Shown here one piece after another: positions 1 to 55,031 of a stretch of DNA of 64,000 nt. Under the pieces are notes generated by a model. The model was given only the letters and a program-made list of their open reading frames with translations. It was not told where the DNA came from and made no database searches. The DNA lies in contig CM037585.1 in assembly GCA_021018995.1 (NCBI GenBank), positions 127,810,831 to 127,874,830 of the forward strand, given 5' to 3'. The stretch comes from Chloranthus sessilifolius. Its lineage: Eukaryota > Streptophyta > Magnoliopsida > Chloranthales > Chloranthaceae. A program made the position numbers and the translations under genes. Positions within the stretch are counted from its first letter, which is position 1, and every line of letters begins with the position of its first letter.

Positions 1-1545
1 GAGGTAATCCAACACCTCGTTTTAACCGCGCGAGCGAGGATAAGAGGCCGCTCAAGCGAGGCTTCGCGACCGCTCGAGCGAGGTTAAGAGGTCGCTCGAG
101 CGATGCTAAGCAACCGCTCGAGCGATACACCAAAACTAAAATTTAATTCTTTTAAGTATACAAATATACCTCATGTGAACTATGCGCTCAAGGAGTGCTA
201 GTGACCACTAATGACCATTCTAAGGCATGTCTTTTCACATGAAATGTAGATTGACGTGAGATCGGGACGTGTCATCACTACGAGAAGGGACCACTGGGTT
301 TTGCCTTGAGGTAGGGAACCTTATCGAAACATGTACATTGTTCAGTTTCGCATATGTGTAGTACAGATTTAATTGCTAAACTAAGTACCTCATCATGTCA
401 CATAAATAGAGCGTGCGTGTGTTGACTTCAGAAAATGAAGCCAGAGGTCCCAAGGGGACGCAAGAACTACAAGATGAATACCTACATGACACAACATATC
501 AGTAGCATCCCAGGGGTGCAGATGAGAATCAGTGGGGAAAAGAAAGTAAAGTGATAAGGCCTAATATATTAAAAATTAGCACAATCACGGTGAATAACTA
601 CATGTAAGGCACACTTGATATTTTTGTTATTTAAGGTTTGTTTAGAATACCTCACCGACGTGGTGGGATACCCATGACTGACTCGGCAGAATATCCGTGA
701 CCGGTACGGCGGTTAATCCAGATACGATGGCACATCCGGGGATGTAGATTTAACGATGAACCCACACCTAGGAGAAAGGGGCTTGAGGCGATATTCGAGG
801 AATGCAAAATTGATAACTGTCTAGTTAGGCAGCGATGGTGGGTATTCCGCCGGGGCTCGATGCTATATTGCTCGGGGACTATTTAAGTTAAAGAGTTAAG
901 TTAAAAGAATAAAACCATGTAAAGTAAGTAGTGGTGTTCACCTTTTCCTTGATTATTTGATTGCCCTTCCGGATAGTGATAGCGGATAAACTATACTTTT
1001 CTTTTCTGCACAACATATATATCAATTAATCTATATGTTTTTCGTTTCCCTATTGAGCTAGGATGTAGCTCACCTTAGACTATCGTCGCAGTGCAACACT
1101 CATGACAACACGGAGTTTGAGGCGTTGATCCTAAGGGTTCGGATTTTGCAGACGGAGAAGAGTTAGAACCTCCTCCCGAGGAATTCTTTTAGAGGTGCTT
1201 TACGTTTAGAAGTGGTGAGTAGAGAGTACTCGTGGCTTGGCATGTCAAGTCCTTTCTTTTAAATGTAATTAAATACTATACTTTTCTTTTGGCAAACTAT
1301 CGAAGGTGATAAGATTATCATTTATGGGTCAAGGTAGTTCCTCTGCTCTTGAATTGGCATGAGACTGGAACAGTCTGTTAGTTGCTAGACCTTATTGAAA
1401 CATGGAGACTTAATTAATTTGAAGCTTTGGTAATTTAAATTGTTGACTTTTAATCGATATGTGATGTTTCGCTTAGATTAAGGTGCATGACCTTGAGGGT
1501 CGTGCTGATGGCAGATTTTTAAGTAACGAAAATCGGGCTATCACA
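1..1545 (+). repeat. 5' LTR of element A (3' two thirds)
   Basis: It aligns throughout with 9500-11087 and ends in TATCACA just before the primer site. Most of it is near-identical to the 3' LTR, but differences cluster in a few short stretches (about 260-370, 490-530, 700-840 and 1075-1130). Confidence 0.92.
27..124 (+). repeat. 22-bp phased palindrome array, 5' LTR of A
   Basis: Copies of CGCTCGAGCG (two with one changed base) start at 27, 49, 71, 93 and 115, exactly 22 bp apart, with 12-bp spacers of differing sequence. This is the same array as 9526-9623 in the 3' LTR. Confidence 0.9.
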
Positions 1546-6574: not shown

Positions 6575-6736
6575 AATTGTTTGTAAATGGTGACGTCACA
6601 TAACACTTTAATTTCAAGTATAAATTTCAATATTTTTCTAGCCGAAACTGTTTGTTACGATGGACCCCTCATGCGAACGTAAGGACGGAAGAAGACAAGG
6701 TACGAGCTTATGGATGAGCAAATCAGCTGATGGGCT

Positions 6737-6949
6737 CGCTCGAGCGATACTTCACAGTCGCTCGAGCGCGATCTACATAAAATAATAAACATCACATGTT
6801 TTGGGCTCGCTCGAGTGATCAATAGTGACCGCTCGAGCGAGGTGTATTGGTCGTTCGAGCGAGGACTCCAAGCCGCTCGAGCGAGGCCAAATTATATGCC
6901 AGTAAATGTTCTGTGATCGCTCGAGCGATAACTAACAACCGCTTCTTCA
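6737..6949 (+). repeat. 22-bp phased palindrome array between integrase and ORF3 of A
   Basis: CGCTCGAGCG or close variants start at 6737, 6759, then 6808, 6830, 6852, 6874, 6918 and 6940. All steps are 22 bp except 6759 to 6808 (49) and 6874 to 6918 (44, in phase with one missing member). The array ends about 160 bp before the ORF3 start. Spacers are unrelated in sequence. Confidence 0.9.
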
Positions 6950-7112: not shown

Positions 7113-8394
7113 ATGGCTTCTTCAAGCCCTAATCCCCAACCAAGGAAGCAAATGGCGACTCGATCGCCACCATCGCGAAACAAAGCACCACAACAACAAC
7201 CACCTCCACCACCGGCAACCATCCCGATCCAACTTGATGATTGGTGGGGCACGAAAGAAATGGAACCCGAGTGGGAAATTCATCCCTCGTGCTTTATTGA
7301 TCCGACATCCACGAAATGGACATCAGATTTCCTGACCAACCACCAACTCCGATCTTTACTTACACCATTTGGACCTCGGTACTATCCGAGATTAGTCCAA
7401 TTATTTTATCAGACCCTCAAAACAAATGTAAATGAAGACACCATCCTCGTCACAATTGACGGGAAGGATCTGTCTTTTGGAGGCAGCGATGTATCCGCGG
7501 CCATGAATCGCCTCTCACCTACACGACACCAAACACACAACCTCCAAACCGGGTTTCCGACAATCATTGATGATATTACTGGCGGCGCGTCCGCATCGGG
7601 TCAATCAATCACCCGATCCCAGCTACCACCACACATTTGGTTTTTGGACATCATTTTCAAGAAAAATTTACACCCTACCGGTCATGACCAAGAGCGGCGT
7701 GACACCTTTTTACGGGCCTTGCACTCCGCTTTCCACAATAGGTGGTTTAGCGCCCCAATGGTCACATTAAAGGCATGGTGCATGCCTATAGAAAATGTTA
7801 GGGCGTTATTCCTCATGAATAACCGCCTCCCATACGCACGTCTTATCTCCTGACTCCTCGATACGCGTAATGGGAGGGATGGATTCAAGATCAACACCAA
7901 TGAGTTATCGCTTACCGATAACATTGTACCCTACATAGCCCAGGACCTCAGCCGAAACCTAAAGGGGCTTCAAAACAGTGTGAACAAGAAAAGAGATCGT
8001 TAGGCTGCAAGGCAAGCACCACAGCCACCATCGACTGGACCGGCTACTCCCTCCACTGTGCCTCCACCACATCTGCATACCATCGACTCCGGTGTGTTAG
8101 GAGAGATTCTCCAATAGGTACGGGAGACCCGACTACATCAGCGGTTCCAGGAGGCGCTTCTTATTGACCTCATGGGTCAAGCTTATCCGCAGACGCATCT
8201 GACAGCCGGGTTGCGCGGCGATGAGGGATGCCATTTTTGGGACATCTAGTTCAGCCCAGGTGGCTAGGACCACTACAGAGGGTGCCACCCACGCTGGTGA
8301 GACTGTTGGTGAGGGCGAGGGAGACGATGCGGAGAGTGATGAGGAATGGGACACCGGCGATGACGACGATGAGTACGAGGAGGGTGATGACTAG
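7113..8394 (+). pseudogene. ORF3 of element A, plant transposon protein-like
   Basis: This accessory ORF is on the sense strand downstream of integrase. The protein starts with a Ser/Pro/Gln-rich tail (MASSSPNPQPRKQ), then a folded-looking core with YYPRLVQLFYQTL, IDGKDLSFGGSDVSAAM, IWFLDIIFKKNLHPTGH and RLPYARLIS. A TGA at 7851-7853 interrupts it. After a frameshift it ends at a TAG (8392-8394) in an acidic tail (TGDDDDEYEEGDD). The core matches the ORF3 proteins of elements B and C. The pattern recalls the domain annotated as putative plant transposon protein, but I could not search. Function unknown. Confidence 0.75.
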
Positions 8395-8416: not shown

Positions 8417-8455
<39 letters not shown>

Positions 8456-9005: not shown

Positions 9006-9386
9006 GTGAAAGTGGAGAGAAGTATCTCCCCTACGTAACATCATTTTAACCTAAATAGAGAGGAGGAAGATAGAGAAAGAGAAAAGAGATACTTGTAGGG
9101 AGGAAAGGCTAAGGCCTGGTTGGAGTGTAAACCGGTGGAAGACCTGGAGAGAAGGTCGAACTAGAACCGTAGAGATCTCTTTGTTTCTAACAGGGATTCG
9201 AACGTTGGATCGAGCCGACTACGAGATCCGTCGATTTAGGTAAGAGATAATGCTTGAGAAGTGCTTAGGTATGTCTTAATGATAACCTACAATGTTTAGG
9301 GGCAATGGCCGATTAATTTTATTTAAGATTTAAGGAAATAAAATAGATTTCTTGCATAAAAATCATGAAGTAAATGTTTCCGCCCT

Positions 9387-9623
9387 CGCTCGAGCGATCT
9401 AAACGTCTCGCCGGCGAGGATGTAATATATAACCTGGGAATAGTGCGTTCTGGGCTCGCTCGAGCGAGACCCATATTGAAAGAATAGGCTCACTCGAGCG
9501 AGGTAATCCGACACCTCGTTTTAACCGCGCGAGCGAGGATAAGAGGCCGCTCGAGCGAGGCTTCGCGACCGCTCGAGCGAGGTTAAGAGGTCGCTCGAGC
9601 GATGCTAAGCAACCGCTCAAGCG
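9387..9623 (+). repeat. 22-bp phased palindrome array, 3' LTR of A
   Basis: Copies start at 9387, 9409 (degenerate), 9457, 9491, 9526, 9548, 9570, 9592 and 9614. The last five are exactly 22 bp apart, as are the first two. The offset from the LTR start (528-764) is close to that of the arrays in LTRs C and D. Confidence 0.9.
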
Positions 9624-10590
9624 ATACACCAAAACTAAAATTTAATTCTTTTATGTATACAAATATACCTCATGTGAACTATGCGCTCAAGGAGTGCTAG
9701 TGACCACTAATGACCATTCTAAGGCATGTCTTTTCGCATGAAATGTAGATTGACGTGAGATCGAGGTATCATCACTACGAAGGGACCACCGGTTTTGTCT
9801 GAGGTAGGAACCTTATCGAAGATGGCATTGTTCAGCTTCGCATATGTGTAGAGCAATACGTAACTGAAACTAAGTACCTCATCATGTCACATAAATAGAG
9901 CGTGTGTGTTGACTTCAGAAAATGAAGCCAGAGGTCCCAAGGGGACGCAAGAACTACAAGATGAATACCTACATGATACAACATATCAAGGTAGCATCCT
10001 GTAAGTGCAGATGAGAATCAGTGGGGAAAAGAAAGTAAAGTGATAAGGCCTAATATATTAAAAATTAGCACAATCATGGTGAATAACTACATGTAAGGCA
10101 CACTTGATATTTTTGTTATTTAAGGTTTGTTTAGAATACCCCACCGACGTGGCGGGATACCCACGACTGACTCGGCAGAATATCCGTGACCGGTACGGCG
10201 GTTAATCCGTACACAGTAGCACATCCCAGGGATGTAGATTTAACAGTAGACCCCGCCACCTAGGAGAAAGGGGCTTGGGGCAGTATTCCCAGGGAATGCA
10301 AAATTGATAACTGTCTAGTTAGACGACGATGGTGGGTATTCCATCGGGGCTCGATGCTATATTGCTCGGGGACTATTTAAGTTAAAGAGTTAAGTTATTA
10401 GGCCGGAATCACAACTAAACGAGTAAGATGAGAAAGAATAAAACCATGTAAAGTAAGTAGTGGTGTTCACCTTTTCCTTCAGTTATTTCGATTGCCCTTC
10501 CAGATAGTGATAGCAGATAAACTATACTTTTCTTTTACTGCACAACATATATGTCAGAATTAATCTATATGTTCTTTACGTTTCCCTATT

Positions 10591-11087: not shown

Positions 11088-11665
11088 TTTACAGTCATTG
11101 ATCATAGTTATCAACGACCGTAAAAGAAGCACTCCATCTAGATCTGTTCCTGTAGGCCGATCTAGGCTGTAAAATGATTGATTTATCATTGTCGTGACTT
11201 AGAGTTTTGAGATATGCTATCCTTTTTACATCACTCATACCGCAATGATAGGCTGAGTCATAGTTTTTAGATAGGGTATGTCGGATCAATAGTTGTGTTT
11301 TTCTCGATTCATTTATTTCCCTATTAAATGATGGTGTTTTAATTTTAAATGAAATTGTGGGATTGAATGGTAGAAAAGTTATCAATCAATGGCTTGCTAA
11401 CTCCCTGATCAATTCATAAACTGTCATTTTTCTTCTTTATCATAAATTATTCCGGCCTAGATTGATTATCTTTCTTTTATTGCATTGAGAATCGTGTGGT
11501 ACTTGTATGATAAATTGAATTTCTCCCTTGGTACTTCCTTGGGTGTTTTAAAGTCTTTGAAAGGATTAGATAAATTTCACATTTTCCTGTGGGTTCGACA
11601 CCCCTGTTCTTACCGTGCTACAATAGATCTTGTGCACTTGCAAGGGTTAAACTTAAAATCGATCA
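11088..11665 (+). repeat. 5' LTR of element B, 3' part only
   Basis: It matches 24198-24774 closely and ends in AAAATCGATCA. The upstream part, roughly 790 bp, was separated by the insertion of element A and is outside the window. Confidence 0.92.
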
Positions 11666-11689: not shown

Positions 11690-11744
11690 AATCGGCAAAA
11701 TTTTGATTAATTCGGAAAGAGATTTATTGAAATTATTTGACAAT

Positions 11745-12736
11745 CAATCGATTGAGATATTTTCCTCAATCGATCGACTGCCTTCTGTGGTTGTGAGTGC
11801 TGATTTGTCAATCGATTGACACGAAAGCTTCAATCGATCGACTGTTTTGAGGCTTAATTCTTAAAATTCCAACAAATAAAATTTTTAATTTTTAATTTCG
11901 AATTTTGAATATTGGAATTTTGGATTTTTAAAATTTGAATGATGAAAATTTTGAGATTGTTGAAATTTGCAATTTGGAGTTTGAAATTTAATTTTTAAAA
12001 ATTGAATTTTGATTTTCACGTGTGAATTTTGATTTTGAAATTTAAAAATTGGCATTTTGGATTTTTCACTTGCAAAATCTTCTTTCCCTTATTTTCTTTC
12101 CTTTCGTAAGATTTTGTGGAGTTCTTTTAGGAAGTATAGATTTTTAGGGTCTCTTGTTTAAGAAGTACAGGAGTCTTTTATTCTTTTCCTTCTTTTTCTC
12201 TTTTAGGTAAGATTTCTATAGGATTTTGTGGGATTGTCTTTGGGTTTTAAAATTTGAATTTTAAAATTTAAATCTTGATTTTGATTTTCAACTTTTAATT
12301 TTAAATTCTTAATTTTAAAATTTGAATTTTGAATTTTTAACTTTGAATTTTGAAATTTAAATTTTAGATCTTAATTTTCAAATTTAATTTTGATTTTTGA
12401 AATACGAAAAAAAAAAAAAAAAAAATCTTTTCTTTTCTTCTGATACTGGCTACTGTTCATCATAGAACTCAATCGATTGAAAATTCTCTGCCAATCGATT
12501 GAGACTGAAATTTTATTTGCTGTGGAAATTGTTGAAACTCTATCAATCGATTGAAATCTCTCTTTCACTCGATTGATAGAACCTCTGTCTCAGCTAAATA
12601 GTCTGTGCTGTCCAGTTAGACTTTGGAGGCTCAATTGATTGATTTTAAAACATCAATCGATTGACGGATAAGTCTCTGTTTGAATATTTGTGTGTGCTTT
12701 GTGTCAATCGATTGAGACCACTTCTTCAATCGATTG
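11745..12736 (+). repeat. Leader of B with six palindrome pairs
   Basis: Pairs of CAATCGATTG or one-base variants start at 11745/11767, 11809/11831, 12470/12492, 12544/12566, 12632/12654 and 12705/12727. Every pair is 22 bp start to start. Between the second and third pair lies 600 bp of simple A/T-rich sequence made of TTTTGAATTTT-like words with a poly(A) run near 12406-12425; I see no ORF in it. Confidence 0.9.
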
Positions 12737-12907
12737 AAGTTGATACTTGTGGTTTGTTGTGGAATCATCAACCCTTGTTGTGAGTGTTGGTGCATGAGCT
12801 TTACTCGTTCTCATCACCCACATCTGCAATCGTTTAATCTTGAGATCGAAAGGTCTTGTAGAGAGAATCGTAGACTCCAAAAGAATCAGTATCATCATAC
12901 TGAGACT

Positions 12908-14331
12908 ATGGCAGATCAAAGGAATGGGAATAATCAGAACATTAATAATGGAAATAATGGAAACAATAATCATGACGAGGGCCCAAGAACGTTAGAATAT
13001 TATAATGATCCTGGTTTTTACGAGGATCAAGATAGTATCATGCATGCCCCCATCCCAGGGAACCATTATGAATTTAAATCCGCAATGATTCAAATGTTAC
13101 CGATTTACCATGAATTGTCAAACGAGAATCCACATGTTCATTTGAATGAGTTCATTGCTGTGTGTAAAATGTTCCGAGTGCATAATGTCACCGACGAGAT
13201 AGCTAAGCTACGACTCTTTCCTTTCTCTTTAAGAGATAAGGCAAAAACCTGGTTCTACTCCTTAGAACCGCAATCTATTCAGAGTTGGGCAGAGTTACAC
13301 CGTCAATTCCTAAAAAAATATTTTCCCATGACCAAAATCATTGAGTTGCGTCAGAAGATCCAATTCTTTTCCCAACAACCTACAGAAACATTTTATGAAT
13401 GATGGGAACGCTTTAAGTAATTGATTAAGAGTTGTCCTAATCATCAGCTTTCGAGGTGGCAACAGGTCCAAAGTTTTTACAATGGACTAATTCCAGAAGA
13501 GAGACGCATGGTTGATGCATCCTGTAGAGGATCATGTGCCACAAAAGAGGTTGATGAACTGTGGGCATTGTTTGAGAAGTTATATCAAACTTCAATCCAA
13601 AACGTGACAATGGAGCGAACTATTTGGATGTGGCAACTAAATCTCATGTGTTGACCAGAGATGGATTATTAGATGTCAACAATACCTCAGCTCTTTCAAT
13701 AAAGGTTAACATGTTGTCCAAGAAAAAGAACATGTTGTTAGCTGCAACTAAGCAAGCTAAAAGTCCCAGCAACCCCACCGCTTGTTCAATCTGTGACCAC
13801 CCAGGTCACATGGCAAACGATTGCCCAACTACCTTGTCATTCTTCCCTGATGAACCTACTCCTCAAGAGCAGGTGAATCTGACTCAATCAGATCGTAAAT
13901 GACATGTACTCAAACACCTACAATCTGGAATGGAAAAATCACCCCAACTTAGGATGGGGAGGATCAAACCAAACTAGACAGGTGAACCAGCAGTACAGAT
14001 CCAACGTAATGAGTGGACAACAGAACTTTTGTCCACAACAAAATTCTACTTTCCAACAGAACTCTCCTTATTATCATCCAAATTCTGAATACCGAAAAAA
14101 TTAGAATTTCAATCAGAATTTTAATCATTCTCAGACCACCGCTTCAAAAGATTCTGATTTGGAAGAAAAGATTATGCGAAATATGCAAGCTTTTCAGCAG
14201 ATGATGATGGACTAATTTAGCCAATTGACAAATCAGTTGAGTCAACGAGAGGAAGGTAGGCTTCCTAGCCAACCCATTAACAATCCTCGAGGCCAACCAT
14301 CATCTGATGAAGGACCATCAAACAGTCAATA
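12908..14331 (+). pseudogene. gag of element B, broken
   Basis: It starts at MADQRNGNNQN after an ATG in good context, with an Asn-rich N-terminus. The capsid region has LRLFPFSLRDKAKTWFYSLE and FLKKYFPMTKI. The frame is stopped at 13400-13402 and again soon after, yet continues as LSRWQQVQSFYNGLIPEERR. A frameshift near 13610 leads to the single zinc knuckle CSICDHPGHMANDC, then SNTYNLEWKNHPNLGWGG, a segment typical of Athila gag. Further stops follow at about 13900 and 14100. The product would be the particle protein. Confidence 0.85.
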
Positions 14332-14332
14332 G

Positions 14333-15352
14333 TTGAAAGTTGTTACGGTGCTGAGAAGTGGGAGAGCAGTTGATAATCAGGTGGAGATGCCAGTGAAACC
14401 TCACAAGGAAGAAGAAAAAAAAGCGAGAAAAGGCAAAGGACTAGATAAAGGAAAAGAGAAAGAAGGTCCTCAAATTGTCCAACCAGTACCTGAAGAAGAA
14501 TCAGAGAATGAACCCTGTTCCTATACCCCAAAGGCACCATTCCCTGAGTGCCTAACACCTCCATCTAGAATGGGGAAGGGAGCGTAAAAAATGGAAGAAA
14601 TCTTCGAAACATTTAAATAAGTGAAGATAAATCTTCCATTACTTGAAACAATCAAGCAAGTCCCTGAGTACGCAAAATTTTTCAAAGATCTATGCACTCG
14701 AAAAAAAACAGCACGTACTCACATTTCAAAGAAAGTATTCCTGACTAATCAAGTCAGTTCAATATTGCAATTGGATGCCCCACGAAAACTTAAGGACCCT
14801 GGAGTCCCAACTGTTCCGTGTGTCATTGGTGGGCAACCAATTGGTAAGGCGTTACTAGATTTGGGAGCAAGTGTCAATTTGATCCCCTACTCAGTGTACG
14901 AGAAATTAGGACTGGGCAAATTAAAACCCATGACAGTTACACTGCAACTTGCTGACAGGTCAGAAAGAAGACTTAGGGGCATCATCGAGGATGTCTTGGT
15001 TGGAATAGACAAATTTGTCTTCCCGATGGACTTTATTGTGTTGGACATGGAACCTCCAGTTAAATCTATCAATCAAGTCCCAATCATTCTTGGGCGTCCG
15101 TTTCTCGTGACCGCAAATGCCTGCATCAATTGTTGAACAGGAGTCATGGATGTTTCTTTCGAAAACATAAAAGTTAGATTCAATATATTTCATGTGGTAA
15201 ATCATTTTCCCAATGAGGATGAGGTTGATTGTTTCTACATAGATCAGGTGGACGAAGAAGTGGATGAAGCTTTACCATCAATGCTTACCAAAGAAGAATT
15301 CGAAACTGCTTTGTTAGCCATCTATGAAGAGCCAGGATCTGCGAAGAAATAG
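14333..15352 (+). pseudogene. Protease region of element B
   Basis: A charged hinge (KKARKGKGLDKGKEKEGP) leads into the aspartic protease with ALLDLGASVNLIPYSVYEKL (active site DLGAS, as in Athila) and VPIILGRPFLVTANA. The frame is broken around 14590, at 15134-15136 and at 15350-15352. The downstream piece reads TGVMDVSFENIKVRFNIF, the usual continuation toward RT. Confidence 0.82.
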
Positions 15353-15472
15353 TCAGAAGAGAAGAGGACGATTTCATCAACTAAAGATGATACGTTATGT
15401 GAAATTGAGACTACGATGGAACCGTTACCTATTCAGGTAAAAGATGAGCTGACTCTATCAATCTAGCAGCCA

Positions 15473-16650
15473 CCAACCGTCAAGTTAAAGCAACTGCCTG
15501 AGTCACTTAAGTATGCTTTTCTAGGACCTCAGGAAACACTTTCGGTAATTATTTCATCAACATTATCGGAAAAACAAGAGCATGAATTGTTAAGAGTTCT
15601 TAAAGATCATAAAAAGGCCATCGGATGGACCTTAGCTGATCTTCAAGAGATTGATCCATCAGTATGTGTGCACAAAATACATCAAGAAGATGATAGTACA
15701 CCATCGAGAGAACCACAGAGGCGACTTAATCCGAATATGAAAGAAGTCGTTTTAAAAGAAATCATCAAGTTAGTCGATGCTGGAATAATCTATGCGATCT
15801 CGGATAGTGAATGGGTAAGTCTAGTTCAAATTATTCCCAAAAAGTCTAGGATAACAGTGAAAGAGACTACCAAAGGAGAATTGGATCCCAGTCGTGAAAC
15901 TACGGGGTGGCGGGTGTACATCGATTATTGAAAATTGAACGCGGCTACCAGGAAAGATCATTTTTTCCTTCCATTCATTGATCAAATTCTTGAAAAGTTA
16001 GCAGGGCAAGAGTTTTACTATTTTCCCGATGGATATTCAGGTTACAATCAAGTACCCATATTTCCTGCAGATCAAGAGAAGACAACGTTCACGTATCCGT
16101 ACGAAACGTTTGCATATCGAAGAATGTCGTTCGGCTTGTGTAATGCACCCGCCACTTTTCAAAGATATATGTTGGCCATATTCTCGGATATGATTGACAA
16201 ATTCATCGAAGTCTTCATGGATGACTTTTTTGTTTTTGGAAAGACCTTTGAACTGTGTTTGCACCACCTTTCACAGGTATTGCAACGATGTGTCGAATCC
16301 AAACTTGTTCTTAGCTGGGAGAAAAGCCATTTCATGGTGTAGCAAGGAATTGTGTTGGGACATATCATTTCAAAGAAAGGAATCGAAGTCGACTTAATTG
16401 CTAATTTACCACCCCCAAGGAATGCTCGACAAATTCGATCATTTCTGGGTCATGCGGGATTTTATAGGAGATTCACCAAAGATTTTAGCAAGGTCGCCAA
16501 GCCATTGTGCAACTTGCTTGGAAAATATGTTCCTTTTGACTTTGATGAGGATTGCATGAAAGCATTCCTGAAATTGCGTGAGCTGTTATCAAATGTGCCA
16601 ATAATCCAACCATCGGATTATTCTCTACCTTTTTGAACTCATGTGCGCTG
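15473..16650 (+). pseudogene. Reverse transcriptase of element B
   Basis: It shows LKQLPESLKYAFLG, IGWTLADLQEIDPSVCVHKI, GWRVYIDY, RRMSFGLCNAPATFQRYM and the catalytic FMDDFFVFG with both aspartates. Stops occur at 15929-15931 and 16340-16342, and in each case the following domain words are present at once, so the gene is interrupted rather than short. The thumb reads PRNARQIRSFLGHAGFYRRF. The end, near 16640, runs into a deletion in RNase H. Confidence 0.85.
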
Positions 16651-17118
16651 ATTGATGCCCAACTGAATTACACCACCACCGAGAAGGAATTGCTAACTAT
16701 GGTGTATGCATTAGATAAATTCCGCTCCTATTTGCTTGGATCAAAAATAGTGGTCTTCTCAGACCACTCTGCGTTGAAATACCTGCTAGCGAAAAAGGAC
16801 ACCAAACCAAGGTTGATCCGATGGATCTTGCTCATCCAAGAGTTAAATTTTGAGATCAAAGATAAAAAAGGGGTCGAAAATGTTGTGGTTGATCATTTGT
16901 CAAGAATCTTGTCCGAAGAATCAACGGTATATGAGACTATTCATGACACTTTCCCGGATGAACAATTTATGGCAATAGGTGCACCAGCTACAAAATTTCC
17001 TTGGTTCTCAAATATTGTGAATTATCTTGTAACTAGCAGAATCCCTACGCAATGGGGTAAGAATGATAAGAATCTATTTTTCTCCCAAATAAAATACTAT
17101 TTTTGGGATGAACCATAA
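16633..17118 (+). pseudogene. RNase H of element B with internal deletion
   Basis: The sequence jumps from ELMCA to DAQLNYTTTEKELLTMVYAL. In relatives these words are separated by a few dozen residues that carry the first catalytic aspartate, so that piece is missing here. The rest is present: FSDHSALKYLL, RLIRWILLIQELNFEI and VVDHLSRI. The stop is at 17116-17118. Confidence 0.8.
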
Positions 17119-18291
17119 TTATTCAAATTCTGTTCAGATCAAGTAATCAGAAGATGTATACCTGAAGAAGAGCAACTGAGTGTCATTAATTTCTGCCATA
17201 CTGGAGCCTGTGGAGGCCATTTCGGAGGATAAAAGACCGCACACAAGATTCTTCAAAGCAGATTCTATTGGCCCTCCATCTTTCGGGACACTGTCAAATT
17301 TTGTAAAGCACACCAACGATGTCAACAGCTTGGAAATATTTCACGACAAAATATGATGCCACTGAACCCGATTCTGATTGTTGAAATTTTCGACGTTTAG
17401 GGGATCGACTTTATGGGTCCTTTTCCCCCATCGTTTGGGTATTCATATATTCTAGTAGCTGTTGACTATGTATCCAAATGGATAGAAGCTGTGGCAACCT
17501 GCTCGAATGACCACAAGGTCGTGGTCAAATTCTTGAAAGAAAATGTCTTTAATATATTCGGGATTCCAAGAGCAATCATTAGTGATGGCAGTTCGCACTT
17601 CTGTAACAATCATTTTGCCACTTTAATGAAGGAATATGGTGTTACCCACAAGGTGGCAATGTCGTATCACCCGCAGACTAGTGGACAAGTGGAAGTGTCG
17701 AATCGAGAAATCAAAAGAGTTTTAGAAAAGACGGTTCGACCGGACATAAGAGATTGGTCGAATAGCCTATCTGATGCTCTGTGGGCATATCGTACTGCAT
17801 TTAAGACCCCGATCGGAATGTCACCGTTTAGGATTGTCTATGGGAAGGCATGACATCTCCCAGTTGAATTGGAGCATAAGGCATTCTGGGCCATAAAAAG
17901 ATTTAATTTTGATATGAAAGAGGCAGGGCCCAATCGATGCCTACAGCTGAACGAATTAGAAGAACTACGCTATGATGCGTATGAGAATTCGAAGATATAT
18001 AAGGAAAGATATAAAAAGTTGCACGATCAGTCAATTTTGCGGAAAGAGTTTCACATTGGGCAAAAAGTTTGGTTGTTCAACTCCAGACTTAAACTTCATC
18101 CGGGGAAATTGAAATCAAGGTGGGAAGGACCATTTCAGGTTGTCTCCACTACCGTGCATGGTGCGATTGAAATTAGAAGCCTTATGGATAATCGAATTCT
18201 CAAAGTCAATGGGCAACGACTCAAACCAATGATCGAGCCAATGACCCAGATGAGGATTGAGGCAGCGCACCTCAGTGACCTAGAAAATTGA
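17119..18291 (+). pseudogene. Integrase of element B
   Basis: The zinc-binding part reads CHTGACGGHFGG and CKAHQRCQQLG. The catalytic core has [27 protein letters not shown] and [10 protein letters not shown], which supply D, D and E. The C-terminal part has [16 protein letters not shown]. Stops fall near 17230, at 17398-17400 and at 17851-17853. There is no chromodomain, as expected for Athila. Confidence 0.87.
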
Positions 18292-18397
18292 ACATTGAAG
18301 TAGTCGAGCTATCGACACTATAAACTCAGCGCTTCCTGGGAGGCAACCCAGTGTGTTTTCTTATTTGGTTGTGTTTGTATTTGATAAGAGTCTTTTT

Positions 18398-18855
18398 CAA
18401 TCGATTGACTGTCAAAATAGTCAATCGATTGATGTTCAATCATCATCATCATGTCCCCCCTTCGTTTGTCAATCGATTGAGAGGCTAATGTCAATCGATT
18501 GACATCACCTTGAAGTTAAAGTCAGTTTTCAGAAATCGGAGCGTCAATTGACATATATTTTCGATTGCAGCTAAATTTTGGGGCACGTCAATGTCAATCG
18601 ATTAATACTAACCCCTCAATCGATTGATTTGATTGCTTATTAACTCTGTCTGTTCCCGAGGCACTTAACCGGTGCGACTTTTTGTGAAAAGGTATTCTCA
18701 ATCGATTGACATAACTGTGTCAATCGATTGACATTAAGAGTGGATGAGTGGATTGTACCACGTCGCATCCGCATGCTTGGTGTCTTTTCAAATCCTCGCG
18801 ACATGGAGGAGGCCAACCGTTGTCAATCGATTGAGACTTTATCCTCAATCGATTG
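18398..18855 (+). repeat. Five palindrome pairs between integrase and ORF3 of B
   Basis: CAATCGATTG pairs start at 18398/18422, 18470/18492, 18595/18617, 18699/18721 and 18824/18846; the spacing is 22 bp except for 24 in the first. The last pair ends 100 bp before the ORF3 ATG. A TATA-like TTATATAAT at 18865-18873 lies in between, so ORF3 may have its own promoter. Confidence 0.9.
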
Positions 18856-18954
18856 ACATTCATATTATATAATGGGGACACCCATGGTCCCCTTCTTCCC
18901 AAATCCTTCCAATCTGAGTTGTGCATCTTGTTACTCTCATCGTACATGATCAAA

Positions 18955-20118
18955 ATGGCGGTATCTGGACCACCGATATACCGACCACCTCGTCCCGCCA
19001 ACACTTTTATGAGCATCCCTGGTGATGAGTACGTGAATCATCAATTTCAAACGGAGAATTTCTTCGATCTAGCCAAATTTCGTCGCATTGCAGAGGCCGC
19101 CCATTCGATTGAATTTATCGAGTCTCTGCACTTGAAAATGCTGCTCGCTCCTCCTCCTATAGATGTTTCGCTCCGTATTATAAGGCTATTTTACCAAAAC
19201 ATGGAATGGGTGTCCGCTCCAGTGTCACCAACGAGATTACCCTTCATCCGCCTCAACATCGACAATTGGAGATATAACTTGCATGCGGCCGATCTCGCTC
19301 GGGCTTTTAATTTCTACGTGGTTCACCCATTGAACCACCACATCAATCCTGCCGTTGATCTCAGCCAGGACCTTATGATCAACGATATGTGTGGAGGACG
19401 CTGCAGGACCGGTTTGGCCACTAAAAGAGCGGTCCTACCAATGGACATCTTATTTTGGGACATCGTTATGTCAAACAATTTGCTACCGCATGGCACGAAG
19501 AGTGAGAGGACGAAAAATAGGGTGTTAGAACTGTACGTGGCGCACACGAATACTTGGTTTGATGCGCCTGGTTTGATGCTTGAAGAGATGTATCGGTGTC
19601 ACAGGGACATCGTGATCACCACCAAACCATAGAAGCGAGAAGCTATTCTCTTACATTTCCCACACTATGTGATGCATCTTTTAGACGAAGTTGGGTGCCC
19701 GATTTATGATGATGAAGAGATGGGTGATATGCAATTTTATTACTACGGCACGAACGTTTGGGATAAGAGCATCAAAGCTATTCTACATGTGACGCCACCT
19801 CCAATTAAAGTTGATGATGTACCTCCTCCTCCCCGACCAAACCTCGCACAACGCCAATGCGACGGCATTAGATGACCTCGTCCTGAAGAGGTCCCTGATT
19901 TTAACACCGAGGCAGCAGTCGCTCGCCTCGAGGTGCGGATGGATGGGTTGAGTGCCACTATGGGAGGTCTTGATCGACGATCACGGTTTCAAACTTCACT
20001 TCTCATGCGGATGGCCCGGGAATCATTCCCTGGGCGTGCCAACGGATTCATCATAGGAGTGAGAGCGGCGATGGATGAGGAGGGAGACCCTGCGTATGAT
20101 GATGATGATGATCAGTAA
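18955..20118 (+). pseudogene. ORF3 of element B, plant transposon protein-like
   Basis: The likely start is MAVSGPPIYRPPRP at 18955 (AAAATGG context). One frame runs through to 20118, interrupted by TAG at 19630-19632 and TGA at 19873-19875; both fit simple C-to-T-type changes. The core has LRIIRLFYQNM, LNIDNWRYNLHAADLARAF and DILFWDIVMSNNLLPHGT, matching ORF3 of A and C. A Pro-rich linker follows (PPPIKVDDVPPPPRP), then a short helical stretch and an acidic end (EEGDPAYDDDDDQ). In Athila elements this position holds an env-like ORF; I see no signal peptide or membrane segment here. Confidence 0.75.
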
Positions 20119-20359
20119 TTGTTGTTTGTGTGTTTGTTTGTATTTATGTCTGTTTAGTGTTTGTGTTTGTGTTTTAATGTGTTTAGTGTGTTTTTCATTT
20201 TATTTTTAGGTAGGATTAATCGTAGTTTGTTTAGTTAATCTCCAAGTTGATGATGGGATCATATGGTTGTAATCAAATCTATCAAATCAATGCAATCGAA
20301 GTGTTTGTAGTATGTTAATTTCTATGTTCATTCTCGGATTGATGCATAAGTGCATCAGT

Positions 20360-20602
20360 CAATCTATTGAGATGTCACCCTCAATCGATTGAGCACATTA
20401 AGCCTTCAAATTCCTCGAAAATTAAACTCCAAATAGTCGATCGATTGAGGGACAATTCTTACTCGATTGACTCTTGCGTGGATAGAACTTTCTAATCTGT
20501 CAAATACGGAAAGTCTCTCTACAGAAAATGTTTTGAAAAGGCACAATTCTACTTCCCTTGGCATCTTGTGTCAATCGATTAACACTAAAAGTCAATCGAT
20601 TG
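20360..20602 (+). repeat. Three palindrome pairs between ORF3 and ORF4 of B
   Basis: Pairs start at 20360/20382, 20438/20460 and 20572/20593 (22, 22 and 21 bp). The surrounding 20119-20359 and 20603-20812 are T-rich and hold no ORF that I can support. Confidence 0.88.
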
Positions 20603-20812
20603 ACTGATGTATAATTTCGGAAGGTTACATCTCCCATTCTTGAAATTGAAGATTTGAACCATCCGTAGAGTCCGTAGTGTAGAAGGTTTCTTAGAGAGTC
20701 TTTAGAGTTCGTCTTTTCGAAGTTTTTCTCTATTTAAACACCTTATTAGGCTAGTTCTTTTACAGTATCCCTTTAGTCAAGAAAATTCTTTCCCCTTCCC
20801 CAAGCTTTAGCC

Positions 20813-21262
20813 ATGGCTTCCATTCGGAATTGTACCCAATCTGCTATGAGAAAATTGATGGAACCAGCTCAAAAACGTGCACGCTACCACTCTCCACAAC
20901 CACCGCTTGATTTTTCGAGTCATGAAGTCATCAATCTTGACGATGAATCAACTATAGAACTCAAATCGAGTTTTACTCGTTCTGACAAGGCCGTCAATGA
21001 CCCATCAAGGAACTTGATTCCAACCTACTTGTGCGCGGAATTGAATCCGCCCCCGCCTCTCGTACAGCCGCCTTCCCACCACCATCTCCGCACCATGCAC
21101 TTATTCCACCACCACGGGAGGGAGGGATCACCGACGAGATGTGGAATTATGCGTTCTCGACACCGAAGGAAGGAAGATCCACCATGGATGACTGAAGGAT
21201 TAGGAATGTCCGCTTTAGGGTCTAGTTTTAGGAGTCCTTTTTATTTTAATTTTCATGTTTAG
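20813..21262 (+). pseudogene. ORF4 of element B, unknown
   Basis: An open frame of 149 codons with ATG in CCATGG context, in sense with the element. It carries a basic cluster AQKRARYHSP followed by EVINLDDEST, which looks like a nuclear signal plus a SUMO-interaction-like core, then Pro/His-rich sequence (PPPPLVQPPSHHH). I recognise no domain. Whether it is a separate gene or a piece of a spliced ORF3 product cannot be decided here. Confidence 0.45.
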
Positions 21263-21675
21263 CTTCGCTTATTGTTAAATTTGTTCTAGACTAGATTATT
21301 TTAATATTTTTAGGGCTTATTTTCCTTCATGTTTTAGATTAGGTTCGGTTTCGTTTTGTCTTAGGCTATTTTCTTTTATTTAAATTTTCAATAAGTGTAA
21401 TAATTTGCATACGTTTAATAAAAATTTAGTTGAGTACCTATGTGCGTTTTTAATTTTCGAACCCAATACCTTTCACTTGGTCCGCCAATTACTTTTCGCT
21501 GCAGTAAACAGGTTTGGGGGGTCTCTTATGCTCTCCAATATTTTCACCAATGAGGGCATTGGCCAAATCAGGTTTGGGGGGGGGGGGGGGGGTATTTCCT
21601 TCAATTATGTGTTGCTTTATTAAAAAAAAAAAAAAAAAAAAAAGAGTCTGCTCTCGAATTTTAAAGTATATCAGT
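21263..21675 (+). other. Noncoding segment of B with purine-tract-like repeats
   Basis: AGGTTTGGGGGG occurs at about 21509 and again, with a G run of roughly 17-18, at about 21570-21591. These resemble the true polypurine tract at 23395 and may be extra priming sites or decayed copies. An A run sits at 21621-21643. Confidence 0.5.
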
Positions 21676-21778
21676 CAATCGATCGAGACCAACTGACTCA
21701 ATCGATCGATTAATGATTGGCAGACTAACTAAAAACCCTTATCAGTCAATCGATTGAGGAATTGGAATCAATCGATTG
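21676..21778 (+). repeat. Two palindrome pairs downstream of ORF4 of B
   Basis: Pairs start at 21676/21699 (23 bp, CAATCGATCG variants) and 21747/21769 (22 bp). Confidence 0.88.
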
Positions 21779-23394
21779 ACTGATGGCAATTAATTTTATG
21801 AATTTTAAATTTTAGTCATATTCTTAAATTGTTGATGACCGGAAATTCTTTAAAAAATTGTTATCATGCCATGACTATTTTATGAATGCTCATTAATGTT
21901 AAAAATTGTTATCATGTCATGCATTGCTTTAAATCCAAAATCTAAGAGTTTAAGTCAAAGAACTTGAAATCCTAAGATTCCAAAGAAAGACTAAAACCTA
22001 GTGAGCTCTGGAACTTTGTCCTCGTTCTTGATGAGTGCTGAAATAAATTCGGAGTATCTTTGAATTTCTTGCTTAGATTGTTGAAATCTCGTATATTCTA
22101 GTTTTGATTTGTTGATTTCACGTGTGTTATGCCATTACACTAGAAATCATTGTGTAAAAACTCAAGGAAAATAGGCATCGTTACCATCGTGAAAGGAAAT
22201 GATCTAAAGCCATTATTGGCTCGTTTGTGCCCAAAAGGCCCCACCTTATATTGAATTATCTTGTTGCACCCCCTTTGAGCCTCAACTGAAAGATTTTGCC
22301 TTAATTATTCCTTGTAAGCTATATTAACCATACTCCATAATAGTGAAATACCTTACCCTTCAATCTCTGAGAAATTGGGAAAGAAGGATGAGAGCAAAAT
22401 GGAAAATAGAGAGTTATGGCAATTGTAATGTAAGGAGTATATAGCAGAAAAACATAAAAGGTGAGAGAAAAAGAGAAAATTCATCTTGGTACAAGAGGTA
22501 GAAAAATACGTGAAAGTGGCGTTAAAAAGAAAAGAAAGAGAAAAGTGTGATAAAGAGGAAAAAGTTCTAAAAAATCCAAAAAAGAAAGAGTGCAAAGTTA
22601 GAGAATCAAAGATGTTTCTTTTTCCGATTTCTCAGAGAACTTTGAATCCAATTTTCCCTTTATTTCATAACCTTCACCCGAGCCCCATTACAACCTTAGA
22701 AAAGACCTTTTTGATCTAACCATGGGTGGTAAATGTCTTGTGGAGAGTGATTATAAAAATGTCTATGATGCTTGGTATATGCATGTTTAAAATACAAATA
22801 TCTGTCTCAACGAGGTTTCTTTCTAAATTTGTTGGTACACCGTCTTTCTTATAACATGTGAGATTTTTCGAATTTGTGTTGTAATTCCAATCTCACATCG
22901 GAGTGAAAAATAAAGCTATTTATCAGGAGTGATTTCATTTTGAGTGAATACCCATGGTAAGGATTGAGTCTAGACATGTGATCTAAAGGTTCCTAGTTCA
23001 AACTTATTCTCAGATAACGGAACTTTAGCAGTGATGAGTGTATAACACTTTGAGGCATGAATTATGAGCATTGGAAAAACAATGAACTAAATTGAATGAG
23101 CATTACGAAAATAAGCATGAACAGTAGCATTTTATAAGAATTCACGGATGATCAACCATGCAAGGGCATGAGTACAATTCTGAAATTCATAAGCTTTGAA
23201 GTTTGTAGGTACCTTCCCTGAAAACCTTCAGGAGATAAAATTTCTCCACTAGGGATCACCTAGGGGTTTAAAGGCTTATTGCATGCGCTAAATGCAATCG
23301 TGCTCCCTACGAAAGTGGCAATTTTTTTTAGGATGTTAGTTTTATTTGCTTTGATATATTTTTCATTCTCTTTGCTCGAGGACTAGCAAAGTGT
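21779..23394 (+). other. Long 3' untranslated region of element B
   Basis: About 1.6 kb of AT-rich sequence. The open frames near 22353-22719 are Lys/Glu- or Phe/Ser-rich products of A/G-rich sequence and show no domain. It ends with GCTCGAGGACTAGCAAAGTGTAGGTTTG, wording typical of the region before an Athila-type polypurine tract (shown here only in part as GAGGACTAGCAAAG). Confidence 0.6.
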
Positions 23395-23405
23395 AGGTTT
23401 GGGGG
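23395..23405 (+). other. Polypurine tract of element B
   Basis: AGGTTTGGGGG lies directly before TGTGATCGG, the start of the 3' LTR. Confidence 0.8.
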
Positions 23406-24774
23406 TGTGATCGGTGTCGAAATGTGACTATATTGCGTACCCTAAATCCTATATTTAGCTGTCCGATGAAAGCATCTGATGGTTGTTATGAGATTTTAAT
23501 GATTACAGGTGTTTCTGACCGTTGGATCGTTAAAGAGCATAAAAGAGGGTAATTAAAGGATACATAAGGGCTATAGATTAAAAGGTCAAAAGAAGCATTG
23601 AAATCCGTGAAGTAGCTAAACATCTACTAGAGAATAAAGATTCTACCCCTATGTGTCAATCGATTGAAGACTAAGTGTCAATCGATTGACAGGAGAAGAC
23701 AACTTTGTCCCCACTTACTTCAATTCAAAATTCAATCGATCGAGATTTAATTCTCAATCGATTGAGGCTATTAGGGATAGGGTTTGCTCGGCCCTATAAA
23801 AAGGAAGCTACGACTTTTTATAAGGAATCTTCTTTCATCATTTTTTAATATTATTATGGAGAGACTATTTTTCCTTCTTGGAGGGTTCTTCTTTCTCTCA
23901 GTAGATTGTATTAGAGTTTTTAATTCTCTTTTATAGTTTTGAGAGCATAGATTGTACCTAGGAATAAAAGCATTGTAAGGAGAATTTTGAGATAAATAAA
24001 AGAGCTTTATTAAAATGATGTCTTCGGATCTACAACAGGTTTGTATATCGAGGATGAGCGGCTAAATTTATTTGCTCAAGGAGGAGGCGAACCGGAGATA
24101 AGTAACTGTTCTGTTATTATTTCTACAATTTTATGGTATTATCATTGAATCATTCTGTTATAAGTGTATGCTTGGTTGAATATTATCGAGTCTTTGTTTA
24201 CGGTCATTGATTGTAGTTATCAACGACCGTAAAAGAAGCACTCTATCTAGATCTGTTCCTTTAGGCCGATCTAGGCTACAGAATGATTGATTTATCATTG
24301 TCATGACTTAGAGTTTTGAGATATGCTATCCTTTTTACATGACTCATACCGCAATGACAGGCTGAGTCATAGTTTTTAGATAGGGTATGCTGGATCAATA
24401 GTTGCGTTTTTCTCGATTCATTTATTTTCCTATTAAATGATGGTGTTTTGATTTTAAATGAAATTGTGGGATTGAATAGTAGAAAAGTTACGAATCAACA
24501 GCTAGCTAACTCCTTGATCAATTTATAAACTGTCATTTTTCTTCTTTATCATAAATTATTCCGGCCTAGATTGATTAGCTTTCTTTTATTGCATTGAAAA
24601 TCGTGTAGTACTTGTGTGGTAAATTGAATTTCTCCCTTGGTACTTCCTTAGGTGTTTTAAAGTCTTTGAAAGGATTAGATAAATTTCACATTTCCCTGTG
24701 GGTTCGACACCCTTGTTCTTATTATGCTACAATAGATCTTGTGCACTTGCAAGGGTTAAACTTAAAATCGATCA
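23406..24774 (+). repeat. 3' LTR of element B, about 1369 bp
   Basis: It starts TGTGATCGGTG (or two bases later) and ends AAAATCGATCA. Its second part matches 11088-11665. Two palindrome pairs lie inside, at 23657/23679 and 23733/23755, both 22 bp. GTATC at 24775-24779 should be the target duplication; the other copy is off the window. Confidence 0.9.
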
Positions 24775-49474: not shown

Positions 49475-51706
49475 TGTAATATCCCGATATTTTTGAATCC
49501 GAGTTTGACTGATTTTGTGCACAAGTCCGGCACGGTGACCAATGTCACCATGGTTTTATTTAATAATAAGTCATTAAATAATATTTGGTGAGCTTTGAGT
49601 GGAAGGATTAGAGTTCAGAGTGTGATTGGGCAGTTAGTGTGAAAGCCGTGCACCGACTTGCGGTGTGCCACTCAACACCAAGACCCAACCTATTTGAGCA
49701 TCGTCACCTTTGAAACCCTTGCGGTATTTCGATTGTGCAATCACCTACAAGCTCCGCACACTCCGTACCTTTCACAACGCTTGTGACGTTGATCATCTCA
49801 CGATCTTCGTTTGTGTTTTGAAGAGATGGAGATCAATCGTTGAAGAAATCCGACGATTTTGCTTCAAAACCCTCTTCGGCATTATTTCTTAAAGCTGTGG
49901 GATTAATCGGCAAAAAGGTTAATTTTTCTTTTGATTTTAATGGTTTAGATTGTAGAATAAATCTTATTTTAGTTTAGTGTATGTGTGTGTGCAAAAATAA
50001 AGCGAATCCGACAAGATTTGAGGGGAAAAATAGACCAAGAAAGCAACATGAAGGGTTCTGAACCCGAGAAATTCGAGGGTCGAATTTTAATTCGAGGGTC
50101 GAATTTAGGTTTTTAAGCCTGATGCATTTTTGGGAAATTCGATGGTCGAATTTGAATTCGATGGTCGAATTTGGTCCGACACTGTTTTGGTATTTCGGTC
50201 ATAACTTTTTATCCCGAACTCGTATTAATACAATTTTTGAGGCGTTGGAAATAAGACAACGAGCCCTATAACTTTCATGAATTGACCAATTTATGAATCG
50301 AATGTTATAAAGGTCAAAAATTAGGGTGAAGTAGAGACAAGTTTTTACATGAGTCAATGTTACCTTAAACTTGCCTGTTTTGCCTAACTGTGAGAAAATT
50401 TTAGAAACTTTGGCTTATATGATAATTAGTCGGTAACATGTGTATACATGAATGTTTGTAATGTAGATTAAAGATTGGAGATCGTCGAGTGAGCTTTTAC
50501 TTTGCCTCTGATATGCTCGACTCTAAACTAAGGTAGGGAAAACTTGATATCATGTGCATTATTTCATAAACATGTGTGTTATGTTATGATACGTTCTTCG
50601 ATCCTATTTTGTGATTTCCGTTTATGATTTTGAAGAAATGAGGCATGTGTTTATGTATGACTTAAAAACATGTGAGACTTATGGAATCCTCGAGATTCAT
50701 TTGATATGTGTATAAGAGACTTTCACACTTTGTTCCGACTTCTGATATAAATTATAATTATCACTTCACACGATAAGCTATATGTATGCACTTTTGGATT
50801 TAAGGTTACGGTATAACCGCTGAATCGACGCGGGCAGGATATTCGTGACGCATGCGGCCAATCCGTACACCCTTTCTGATATGTGCTTTGTGGTTCCTAC
50901 CGTAACGGTAATTATATTGACCAAGTGTCCAACTCTACGGGACCTTGGATTTATGTGCAAATGACTCATGTGAGTGACGATGGTGGGTATTCCATCGGGG
51001 GCTTGAGGCTATAGTTCCTCATTCTAGTACTTTAAGTAAACACTTTTAAGTTTTTCTTCTTTCTTATGTCGGAATAGAAATGTGAGCATGTTCATGATTC
51101 CATTAGCATTGCATATGTATGTTAAGGTTATGAAATCACCTCTCTGCATGTGTTCAAAACAACTTTGTGTACGTTATGCCATAAGATATGTGTTTGATGT
51201 TATGATAAGCATGTTATTAGTTTTTTTTCCTACTGAGCTTGGATGAAGCTCATACCCGACTATCGTCAGTGGTCTTGACAGCCTTAGGATCGGCGATCGT
51301 GATTTGGAGAACTCGACTACATTCTTTGAGGAGGAGTTGGAGACCCCAGCATAGGAGTTCCTTCCTTGATCGAGATAGGTCATTTTGGTACTTTTGGATT
51401 ATAATCTTTTTGAATATTGGGCCCTAGGCCATTGTTTTGTCTTTTGGATATCACTTGAGGAACCATCAATAGGAACCATTGTTTAGGTGTTTGGATTGGC
51501 CAACACTGGTGGTTCTTTCTGGTTCCTCTTGGTGATATTTTTTGTTAAAGCTTTTAAGCTTTTGTTCTTGTTTTATTAGCTTTGCTTCTATTTAGATCTA
51601 TGCTTATGCTGCCGGCTTTGTTTGAAATACGGCTTATTGAGAAATCAATAAGATGATGAACCGGCCTTTCCTATACCTTAAGGATTGGAAAAGTCGGGTC
51701 GTCACA
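49475..51706 (+). repeat. 5' LTR of element C, 2232 bp
   Basis: It starts TGTAATATCCCGA and ends GGGTCGTCACA. It is nearly identical to the 3' LTR except in short clustered stretches (about 49750-49785, 50500-50525, 50810-50900 and 51250-51350). Palindromes TTCGAGGGTCGAA start at 50082 and 50101, and TTCGATGGTCGAA at 50138 and 50157. Confidence 0.95.
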
Positions 51707-54560: not shown

Positions 54561-55031
54561 ATACACGAGGAAGCCACACAGGGAGCCTTGGTGAGCTCCG
54601 AGAACAATTTCCGTACCTTTTTGATTGATTTTATTTAAACAATGCATAAGGGAAGTCTTGTATTTAGACTTTTGTAATGTACTTACTTGCTTTATATATA
54701 TATATAATTTTGGCGAGTAATTTTGGCGGTCCAATGCATATTAAATTTGTGCCTGTTTAAACATACCTACTTTATGGAAAATCGAAAAAATTTTGGGCCT
54801 TTGACCAAAACCAGGGATGTTACTCCCTAAATTGTTGGTGGAATTAATAGGGCCTTTTATAGTTAATTCATTTAAATTGTTTTTCTAAGTTAAAATTGGC
54901 TCTATTTGATGCCAGAGATGTCGCTTTCCATAATTGCACTAAACTGGGCTCTAAGGAGGTCGATTTGGACCCAAAGAATGGACCCTTATTTTAAAACTTT
55001 TGAATTTTGGAGGAAAATAGAACTCGAGAAA
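54561..55031 (+). other. Spacer between integrase and ORF3 of C
   Basis: About 470 bp without ORF, AT-rich, with a short TA run at 54696-54707. It leads into the palindrome cluster. Confidence 0.5.

What the first reader, a model, noticed from the sequence alone, without database searches (positions are those of the whole stretch)
11745..23764. Eighteen palindrome pairs in element B with a fixed 22-bp spacing
CAATCGATTG or near copies occur as pairs at 11745/11767, 11809/11831, 12470/12492, 12544/12566, 12632/12654, 12705/12727, 18398/18422, 18470/18492, 18595/18617, 18699/18721, 18824/18846, 20360/20382, 20438/20460, 20572/20593, 21676/21699, 21747/21769, 23657/23679 and 23733/23755. Fourteen pairs are exactly 22 bp apart start to start and the others 21-24. 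Spacers are 12 bp and unrelated in sequence. All lie in noncoding parts. Conserved distance without conserved spacer points to a protein contacting two sites on one DNA face, or to a paired RNA structure.
Basis: seen in the sequence. Interest (0 to 1): 0.88.

Follow-up and report, generated by a model that had tools for sequence, protein, structure and literature searches.

The report
Paired binding-site palindromes in plant retrotransposons
A plant jumping gene carries many copies of one short palindrome in pairs set two DNA turns apart, several related jumping genes carry other palindromes at much the same distance beside their own version of one gene, and that gene's protein is predicted to look like a known plant anti-silencing factor, so these are probably the landing sites of a self-protection protein.

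The parts
11744..11841 (.). cluster 1: two palindrome pairs (11744/11766, 11808/11830; 22 bp each) in the leader just after the primer-binding site (site named from recall)
12469..12737 (.). cluster 2: four pairs (12469/12491, 12543/12565, 12631/12653, 12704/12726; 22 bp each) before gag
18397..18856 (.). cluster 3: five pairs before ORF3 (18397/18421 at 24 bp, the other four at 22 bp); those four were compared in 30 rows of genome copies
20359..20603 (.). cluster 4: three pairs before ORF4 (22, 22, 21 bp)
21675..21779 (.). cluster 5: two pairs after ORF4 (23 and 22 bp)
23656..23765 (.). cluster 6: two pairs in the 3' LTR, 29-139 bp upstream of a TATA-like box
23795..23801 (+). TATA-like box in the LTR (CCCTATAAAAAGG)
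   Evidence: consensus match only
18866..18872 (+). TATA-like box 9 bp after the last palindrome before ORF3
   Evidence: consensus match only
18955..20118 (+). ORF3 of element B: PF20167-like additional ORF, interrupted by in-frame stops; proposed binder
20813..21262 (+). ORF4 of element B, no Pfam match
12908..18291 (+). gag-pol region of element B (gag and protease by Pfam, RT and integrase by similarity to element A; frames interrupted)
11088..11665 (+). 3' part of the 5' LTR of B; its 5' part is missing where element A ends
23406..24774 (+). 3' LTR of B (start placed after a ggtttggggg purine tract)
26..125 (.). element A: five TCGCTCGAGCGA-type sites, each 22 bp apart, in the 5' LTR (cut by the window start)
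6736..6928 (.). element A: seven sites (22, 49, 22, 22, 22, 44 bp) between pol and the additional ORF
7113..7853 (+). element A additional ORF, homologous to B ORF3
9386..9624 (.). element A: eight sites in the 3' LTR, last five 22 bp apart
50070..50171 (.). element C LTR: AATTCGAnGGTCGAATT pairs at 19 bp (also 57956-58057 in the other LTR)
55030..55141 (.). element C: three decayed sites of the same motif just upstream of its additional ORF (first two 20 bp apart)
55157..56119 (+). element C additional ORF, homologous to that of A
61587..61930 (.). solo LTR D (60028-62524, minus strand): 13 TCGATTAATCGA-type sites, 9 of 12 distances 19-22 bp

Best explanation
The palindromes are DNA sites for the element's own additional ORF protein (ORF3, PF20167/Transposase_32-like). 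The protein probably binds each 12-bp palindrome as a dimer; a second dimer sits two helical turns away on the same DNA face, which fixes the spacing near 22 bp and leaves the spacer free. Bound protein at the LTR and before gag, ORF3 and ORF4 keeps these noncoding regions out of silent chromatin (VANC-like anti-silencing) and allows transcription, including that of ORF3 itself. Each lineage has its own protein-palindrome couple, so protection stays private to the family. Shown here: sites, spacing, conservation, linkage of palindrome type to ORF clade. Predicted: VANC-like fold. Inferred: binding, dimerisation, anti-silencing.
Confidence: 0.62

Rival explanations
1. Same binder, other output: the ORF protein binds the pairs but acts as an ordinary transcription activator or repressor of the LTR and of internal promoters, not as an anti-silencing factor.
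For: Clusters sit before gag, ORF3 and ORF4 and 29-139 bp before a TATA-like box in the LTR; a TATA-like box follows the ORF3 cluster by 9 bp. Sirevirus boxes have similar places.
Against: In A the LTR sites are about 390-620 bp downstream of the TATA-like box; the fold match is to an anti-silencing protein.
Confidence: 0.2
2. A host transcription factor binds the pairs, and families have settled on the sites of different host factors.
For: The copia element Tnd-1 has the repeated motif ACAATCGATTGT, which contains the same 10-mer (Bousios 2010), in an unrelated element type.
Against: Palindrome type largely follows the clade of the element's own ORF within one host, at least five palindrome types in one genome share a similar geometry, and the sites sit next to that ORF.
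Confidence: 0.13
3. RNA structure: the two palindromes pair in the transcript as a 10-14 bp hairpin, for example for packaging, dimerisation or small-RNA production.
For: Two palindromes are necessarily complementary; an inner flank base is complementary in 11 of 18 pairs (P 0.005 uncorrected).
Against: No compensatory change in 13 changed cells, 4 in 111 across copies. A stem does not need each arm to be a palindrome, nor arrays of five sites.
Confidence: 0.04
4. Neutral satellite-like expansion: pairs are left over from tandem duplication and have no function.
For: Element A has a 44-bp tandem unit in its LTR; VANC targets also spread by tandem repeats.
Against: Spacers are nearly unrelated between pairs and diverge faster than the flanks while palindromes and length are kept; the geometry recurs with unrelated palindromes.
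Confidence: 0.03

Closest known systems
VANC / VANDAL sequence-specific anti-silencing (Arabidopsis; Hosaka 2017, PMC5735166, passages read)
   Same: Element-encoded protein; short motifs repeated in the element's noncoding parts; related elements have different motifs that change with the protein; best PDB match of a homologue's model is VANC21 on its DNA.
   Different: VANDALs are DNA transposons; VANC21 reads the 9-base YAGTATTAY, not a 12-bp palindrome; no fixed pair spacing was seen in the passages read; Pfam gives PF20167 alone here.
Sirevirus repeated motifs (RM boxes; Bousios 2010, PMC2829016, passages and one section read)
   Same: [quoted passage not shown] Tnd-1's RM contains CAATCGATTG; the ACGGACGTCCGT seen here has the CGG-CCG core.
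   Different: Sireviruses are Ty1/copia and the authors call the boxes Sirevirus-specific; the section read does not describe pair spacing, and no binder is identified there.
PF20167 / Transposase_32 additional ORF of Athila elements (sunflower, PMC11728184, passages read)
   Same: A + strand ORF after pol with partial similarity to PF20167; nuclear localisation predicted there; VANDAL additional ORFs are named as an example of what such ORFs can do.
   Different: Its group is discussed with env-like proteins; no DNA sites are linked to it in the passages read. A follow-up (PMC12844716, passages read) asks, citing VANC, whether such ORFs shape methylation, without sites or fold.
Retand TRP28 antisense ORFs (PMC11963269, passages read)
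   Same: Extra ORF between pol and 3' LTR, DNA binding predicted, family-specific tandem repeats in the same region.
   Different: Antisense, PF04195; no paired palindromes reported in the passages read.

Membership tests
VANC anti-silencing proteins | VANC-like fold | tested here: met
   [not shown]
VANC anti-silencing proteins | recognisable sequence relation to VANC | tested here: inconclusive
   Pfam at E up to 10 gave PF20167 only; profile searches of PDB sequences did not list VANC21.
VANC anti-silencing proteins | cognate short motifs in noncoding parts, differing between related elements | tested here: met
   L217 is an exception. That the motifs are the protein's targets is not shown.
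VANC anti-silencing proteins | carried by a VANDAL (Mutator-like) DNA transposon | tested here: not met
   Retroviral gag, protease, RT and integrase similarities and LTRs
VANC anti-silencing proteins | binds its motif and removes DNA methylation | not testable with these tools
   needs binding and methylation assays
Sirevirus repeated motifs | palindromic motif in 8 or more copies per element | tested here: met
   36 sites in B, 20 in A within the window
Sirevirus repeated motifs | copies in the LTR upstream of a TATA box and upstream of the env-like or additional ORF | tested here: met
   B. In A the ORF part holds, but its LTR sites are downstream of the TATA-like box
Sirevirus repeated motifs | element is Ty1/copia (integrase before RT) | tested here: not met
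   In B the RT match (15692-16282) precedes the integrase match (17401-17850): Ty3 order
PF20167 Transposase_32 | score above the curated cut-off (45 bits) | tested here: not met
   Window ORFs of A, B and C score 24.2, 17.4 and 14.0; BLASTP-related to each other, and a profile of the three finds PF20167 proteins P0001-P0003; the 150 genome hits scored are above the cut-off

The most novel reading that the evidence does not exclude
The 'env-like'/Transposase_32 additional ORFs of plant Ty3 LTR retrotransposons are VANC-type anti-silencing factors: a large class of retrotransposons carries private protein-DNA couples in which the palindrome changes from clade to clade while, in most clades seen here, a spacing of about two helical turns is kept by paired dimers. 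Sirevirus palindromes would belong to the same system, making it one of the widest self-protection systems of plant transposons.
Probability: 0.5. Interest if true: 0.95.

Novelty: new variant of a known kind. Interest (0 to 1): 0.88.

Why it matters
What the additional ORFs of plant LTR retrotransposons do is described as unknown in the papers read in passages (PMC11728184, PMC11963269). This links one large ORF family to a defined DNA element, to a spacing rule and to a predicted fold of known function, so the question becomes directly testable with one binding assay. If right, sequence-specific anti-silencing is not peculiar to VANDAL DNA transposons but also used by retrotransposons, and the protein-palindrome couples are a natural set of binding pairs for studying co-evolution of specificity.

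Tried and rejected
RNA hairpin: tested by covariation in the window and in 30 rows of copies; not supported. Duplicated longer repeat: spacers nearly unrelated between pairs and not conserved between copies, so rejected. Helical phasing between pairs: Rayleigh P 0.08-0.15 at 10.2-10.5 bp, 12 distances, not significant. CpG retention at the motif: suggestive only. In A's LTRs 16 CpG kept and 2 decayed in the array against 34 and 21 elsewhere, P 0.041; in B 34 of 36 central CpG are intact, fewer losses than the LTR rate predicts, P 0.002-0.011 on small samples; across copies 60 of 309 decayed in motif columns against 330 of 903 elsewhere, a filter-dependent count. First AlphaFold model (window A ORF, 3 sequences) had pLDDT 36 and was dropped. 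Rfam and tRNA scans of the window empty. Viral-contig searches found no relatives of the ORFs or of A's RT; DNA pattern hits there and in prokaryote genomes were used only as spacing background. The viral structure library gave no match at E 0.001. B and the TCGATTAATCGA clade cannot be aligned upstream except at the end of pol, so homologous positions of the pairs cannot be claimed. Genome counts at exactly 22 bp, and for A's motif and A's ORF, did not complete. Search for print: ten searches. CAATCGATTG with 'transpos' occurs in two held papers, of which the Sirevirus paper is the plant one. I saw no held paper that links PF20167 to palindromes, but the one search with PF20167 as a term was swamped by an ill-chosen extra term, so this is weak; most subscription papers and all preprints are not held. 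A Sirevirus palindrome paper of 2016 (recalled) and a 2022 VANC paper were not held. The Athila and Tekay lineage names for B, A, C and D are recalled from general features and were not tested by a tree.

Rows dropped: the first pair (24 bp) is not comparable between copies and is left out of the '22 kept' counts; its columns are in the identity figures and left out. L206, L217, L227 and L230 are in no column of the clade table. Twelve of the 23 homologues went into the alignment for the model.
Full report
WHAT IS THERE. The window lies in a genome of 2.17 Gb (G000:C2:127810831-127874830); that it is a plant follows from its elements and ORFs. Element B is a Ty3/gypsy LTR retrotransposon: gag and protease by Pfam, RT and integrase by similarity to element A in Ty3 order, a 3' LTR placed at 23406-24774 after a purine tract, and only the last 578 bp of the 5' LTR, next to the end of element A, which seems to have inserted there. 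After pol come ORF3 (18955-20118, with stops) and ORF4 (20813-21262). The lineage name Athila is my recall.

The 10-mer with up to one mismatch occurs 37 times against 3.1 expected. There are 18 pairs; 15 are exactly 22 bp apart, three are 21, 23 and 24. The conserved unit is 12 bp, TCAATCGATTGA. A scan that knows no motif, only 'similar 12-bp palindromes 12-60 bp apart', finds 55 pairs in the window, 23 of them at 22 bp, against 0-2 pairs in each of 20 shuffles. The pairs cluster in the leader, before gag, before ORF3, before ORF4, after ORF4 and in the LTR before a TATA-like box. The 14 substitutions in 432 motif bases (3.2%) are about what decay after insertion predicts from the 6.1% LTR divergence, so the inserted copy may have had nearly perfect palindromes throughout; this is inference, and one change recurs in 5 of the 14.

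IT IS CONSERVED AS SITES PLUS DISTANCE. I searched the own genome with ORF3 (150 scored of 30,316 candidates) and compared the 30 best loci, the window's included. In the 29 others, 214 of 315 neighbour distances up to 60 bp are exactly 22. Aligned upstream of ORF3, palindromes of the 29 are 94.6% identical to the window copy, spacers 71.8%, other noncoding 82.4% and pol coding 84.9%; spacing is 22 in 24, 29, 28 and 29 of 30 rows for four pairs. The distance between pairs varies more, mostly by a base or two. Palindromes change more slowly and spacers faster than the noncoding between pairs, both with bootstrap intervals that exclude zero. A strict palindrome-pair scan is positive in 30 of 30 noncoding stretches before ORF3 and in 2 of 30 pol-coding stretches of the same loci. 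The whole genome has 23,421 forward matches of the two-site pattern with any gap of 0-30 bp and none for the reversed pattern; 39 of the 50 forward matches listed, all from the first 4.2 Mb of one contig, are at 22 bp (my count of the listing).

IT IS NOT PECULIAR TO THIS PALINDROME. Element A (weak chromodomain match, below the cut-off) has TCGCTCGAGCGA in both LTRs and before its extra ORF, and 12 of its 16 neighbour distances up to 60 bp are 22. Solo LTR D has TCGATTAATCGA with 9 of 12 distances at 19-22 bp, and element C has AATTCGAnGGTCGAATT at 19 bp in both LTRs, decayed copies just before its extra ORF, and two weak matches in its pol region. The extra ORFs of A, B and C are homologous: A-C 34% identity, E 4e-29; A-B 25%, E 2e-16. 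All three resemble PF20167 below its cut-off.

UNBIASED TEST. From the list of 150 scored genome hits of the PF20167 profile (13,855 candidates) I picked 34 by hand for spread of place, score and match borders, before their upstream DNA was known; 20 of them were picked after the first 14 had been scanned. I fetched 1.4-1.5 kb upstream. By the strict scan 21 of 34 carry a palindrome pair at 19-24 bp; controls are 0 of 25 window chunks (C's 17-base motif is outside this scan) and 0 of 8 arbitrary genome places, Fisher P 1e-8. Three palindromes appear: ACGGACGTCCGT, TCGATTAATCGA and, once, TTGATCGATCAA. On a tree of the ORF domain, whose bootstrap had not settled, the six TCGATTAATCGA rows form one group (92/94), sister to element B (96/91). 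Of the 13 negatives, four (L211, L222, L228, L229) carry degenerate ACGGACGTCCGT sites, with distances of 20-22 bp in L211, L228 and L229 but not in L222; six form one clade with the palindrome CCTCGCGAGG at irregular distances; L206, L227 and L230 remain without a clear pair, though L230 has scattered similar sites and two ACGGAC-type pairs lie about 5 kb upstream of L206's ORF. The motif-by-clade table is close to diagonal: 3.33, 7.56 and 13.67 sites per region in the own clade against 0-0.17 in the others; B's palindrome reaches 0.5 in the TCGATTAATCGA clade. The CCTCGCGAGG motif was named after looking, and the table groups rows partly by motif, so it is descriptive; the 21 of 34 count is not. 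L217 is a true mismatch: ORF of the ACGGAC clade, other palindrome upstream; a neighbouring element may explain it, not checked.

MECHANISM. A 12-bp palindrome suits a dimer; 22 bp is about two helical turns, so two dimers would lie on one face. Shown: the sites, the distance, their conservation and linkage to the ORF clade. Inferred: that the ORF protein is the binder, that two dimers cooperate, and that the outcome is loss of silencing marks as for VANC (Hosaka 2017). The site positions would also let the protein control its own expression. RNA pairing fails the covariation test. A host factor is less likely because the palindrome largely follows the element's own ORF, but the Sirevirus Tnd-1 motif ACAATCGATTGT keeps that rival alive.

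WHAT IS KNOWN. Palindromic repeated motifs upstream of the TATA box and of the env gene were described for Sireviruses and called absent from other elements. VANC target motifs in tandem repeats are known for VANDAL DNA transposons. PF20167 in an Athila ORF is known from sunflower, and the question whether such ORFs act on methylation, with VANC as example, has been asked in print. New here, as far as the searches named under Tried and rejected show: paired palindromes with fixed spacing in Ty3 elements, their linkage to PF20167 clades, and the predicted VANC21-like fold. So: a new variant of a known kind, with a bold reading that would unite three separate literatures.

Noticed in passing
   Followed up: partly
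window 18440-18869 and 29 other genome copies: Spacers inside pairs diverge faster than the noncoding between pairs (0.703 against 0.805 pairwise identity); unexplained, perhaps selection for spacer diversity.
   Followed up: partly
L214, L215, L216, L233, L234, L235: A PF20167 clade with palindrome CCTCGCGAGG at irregular distances (39 bp five times, 11 bp three times, 22 bp twice): same logic without the pair rule.
   Followed up: partly
L217: ORF of the ACGGACGTCCGT clade with a TTGATCGATCAA array 1.2-1.5 kb upstream.
   Followed up: no
L207-L210, L213, L220, L221, L224, L225, L239: ACGGACGTCCGT carries the CGG-CCG core that marks Sirevirus repeated motifs, although it sits beside PF20167 ORFs here.
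   Followed up: no
window 18397-18432: The 24-bp pair of the window copy seems to be the remnant of a longer site array: 25 of 30 aligned rows have 67-71 bp there.
   Followed up: yes
window 1-11087: Element A seems to sit in B's 5' LTR, so that LTR's own 5' part, where two more pairs would be expected, is not in the window; no target duplication could be checked.
   Followed up: partly
window 11766, 11830, 21675, 21698, 23732: The same change (TCAATCGATCGA) recurs in 5 of 36 sites, more than random decay would suggest.
   Followed up: no
L255:272-309: An arbitrary genome place has palindromes TGATACGTATCG/CGATACGTATCG 26 bp apart: perhaps another family.
   Followed up: no
window 38032-38742: Intact 236-aa ORF that reads like an R2R3-MYB transcription factor (identified by eye).
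   Followed up: no
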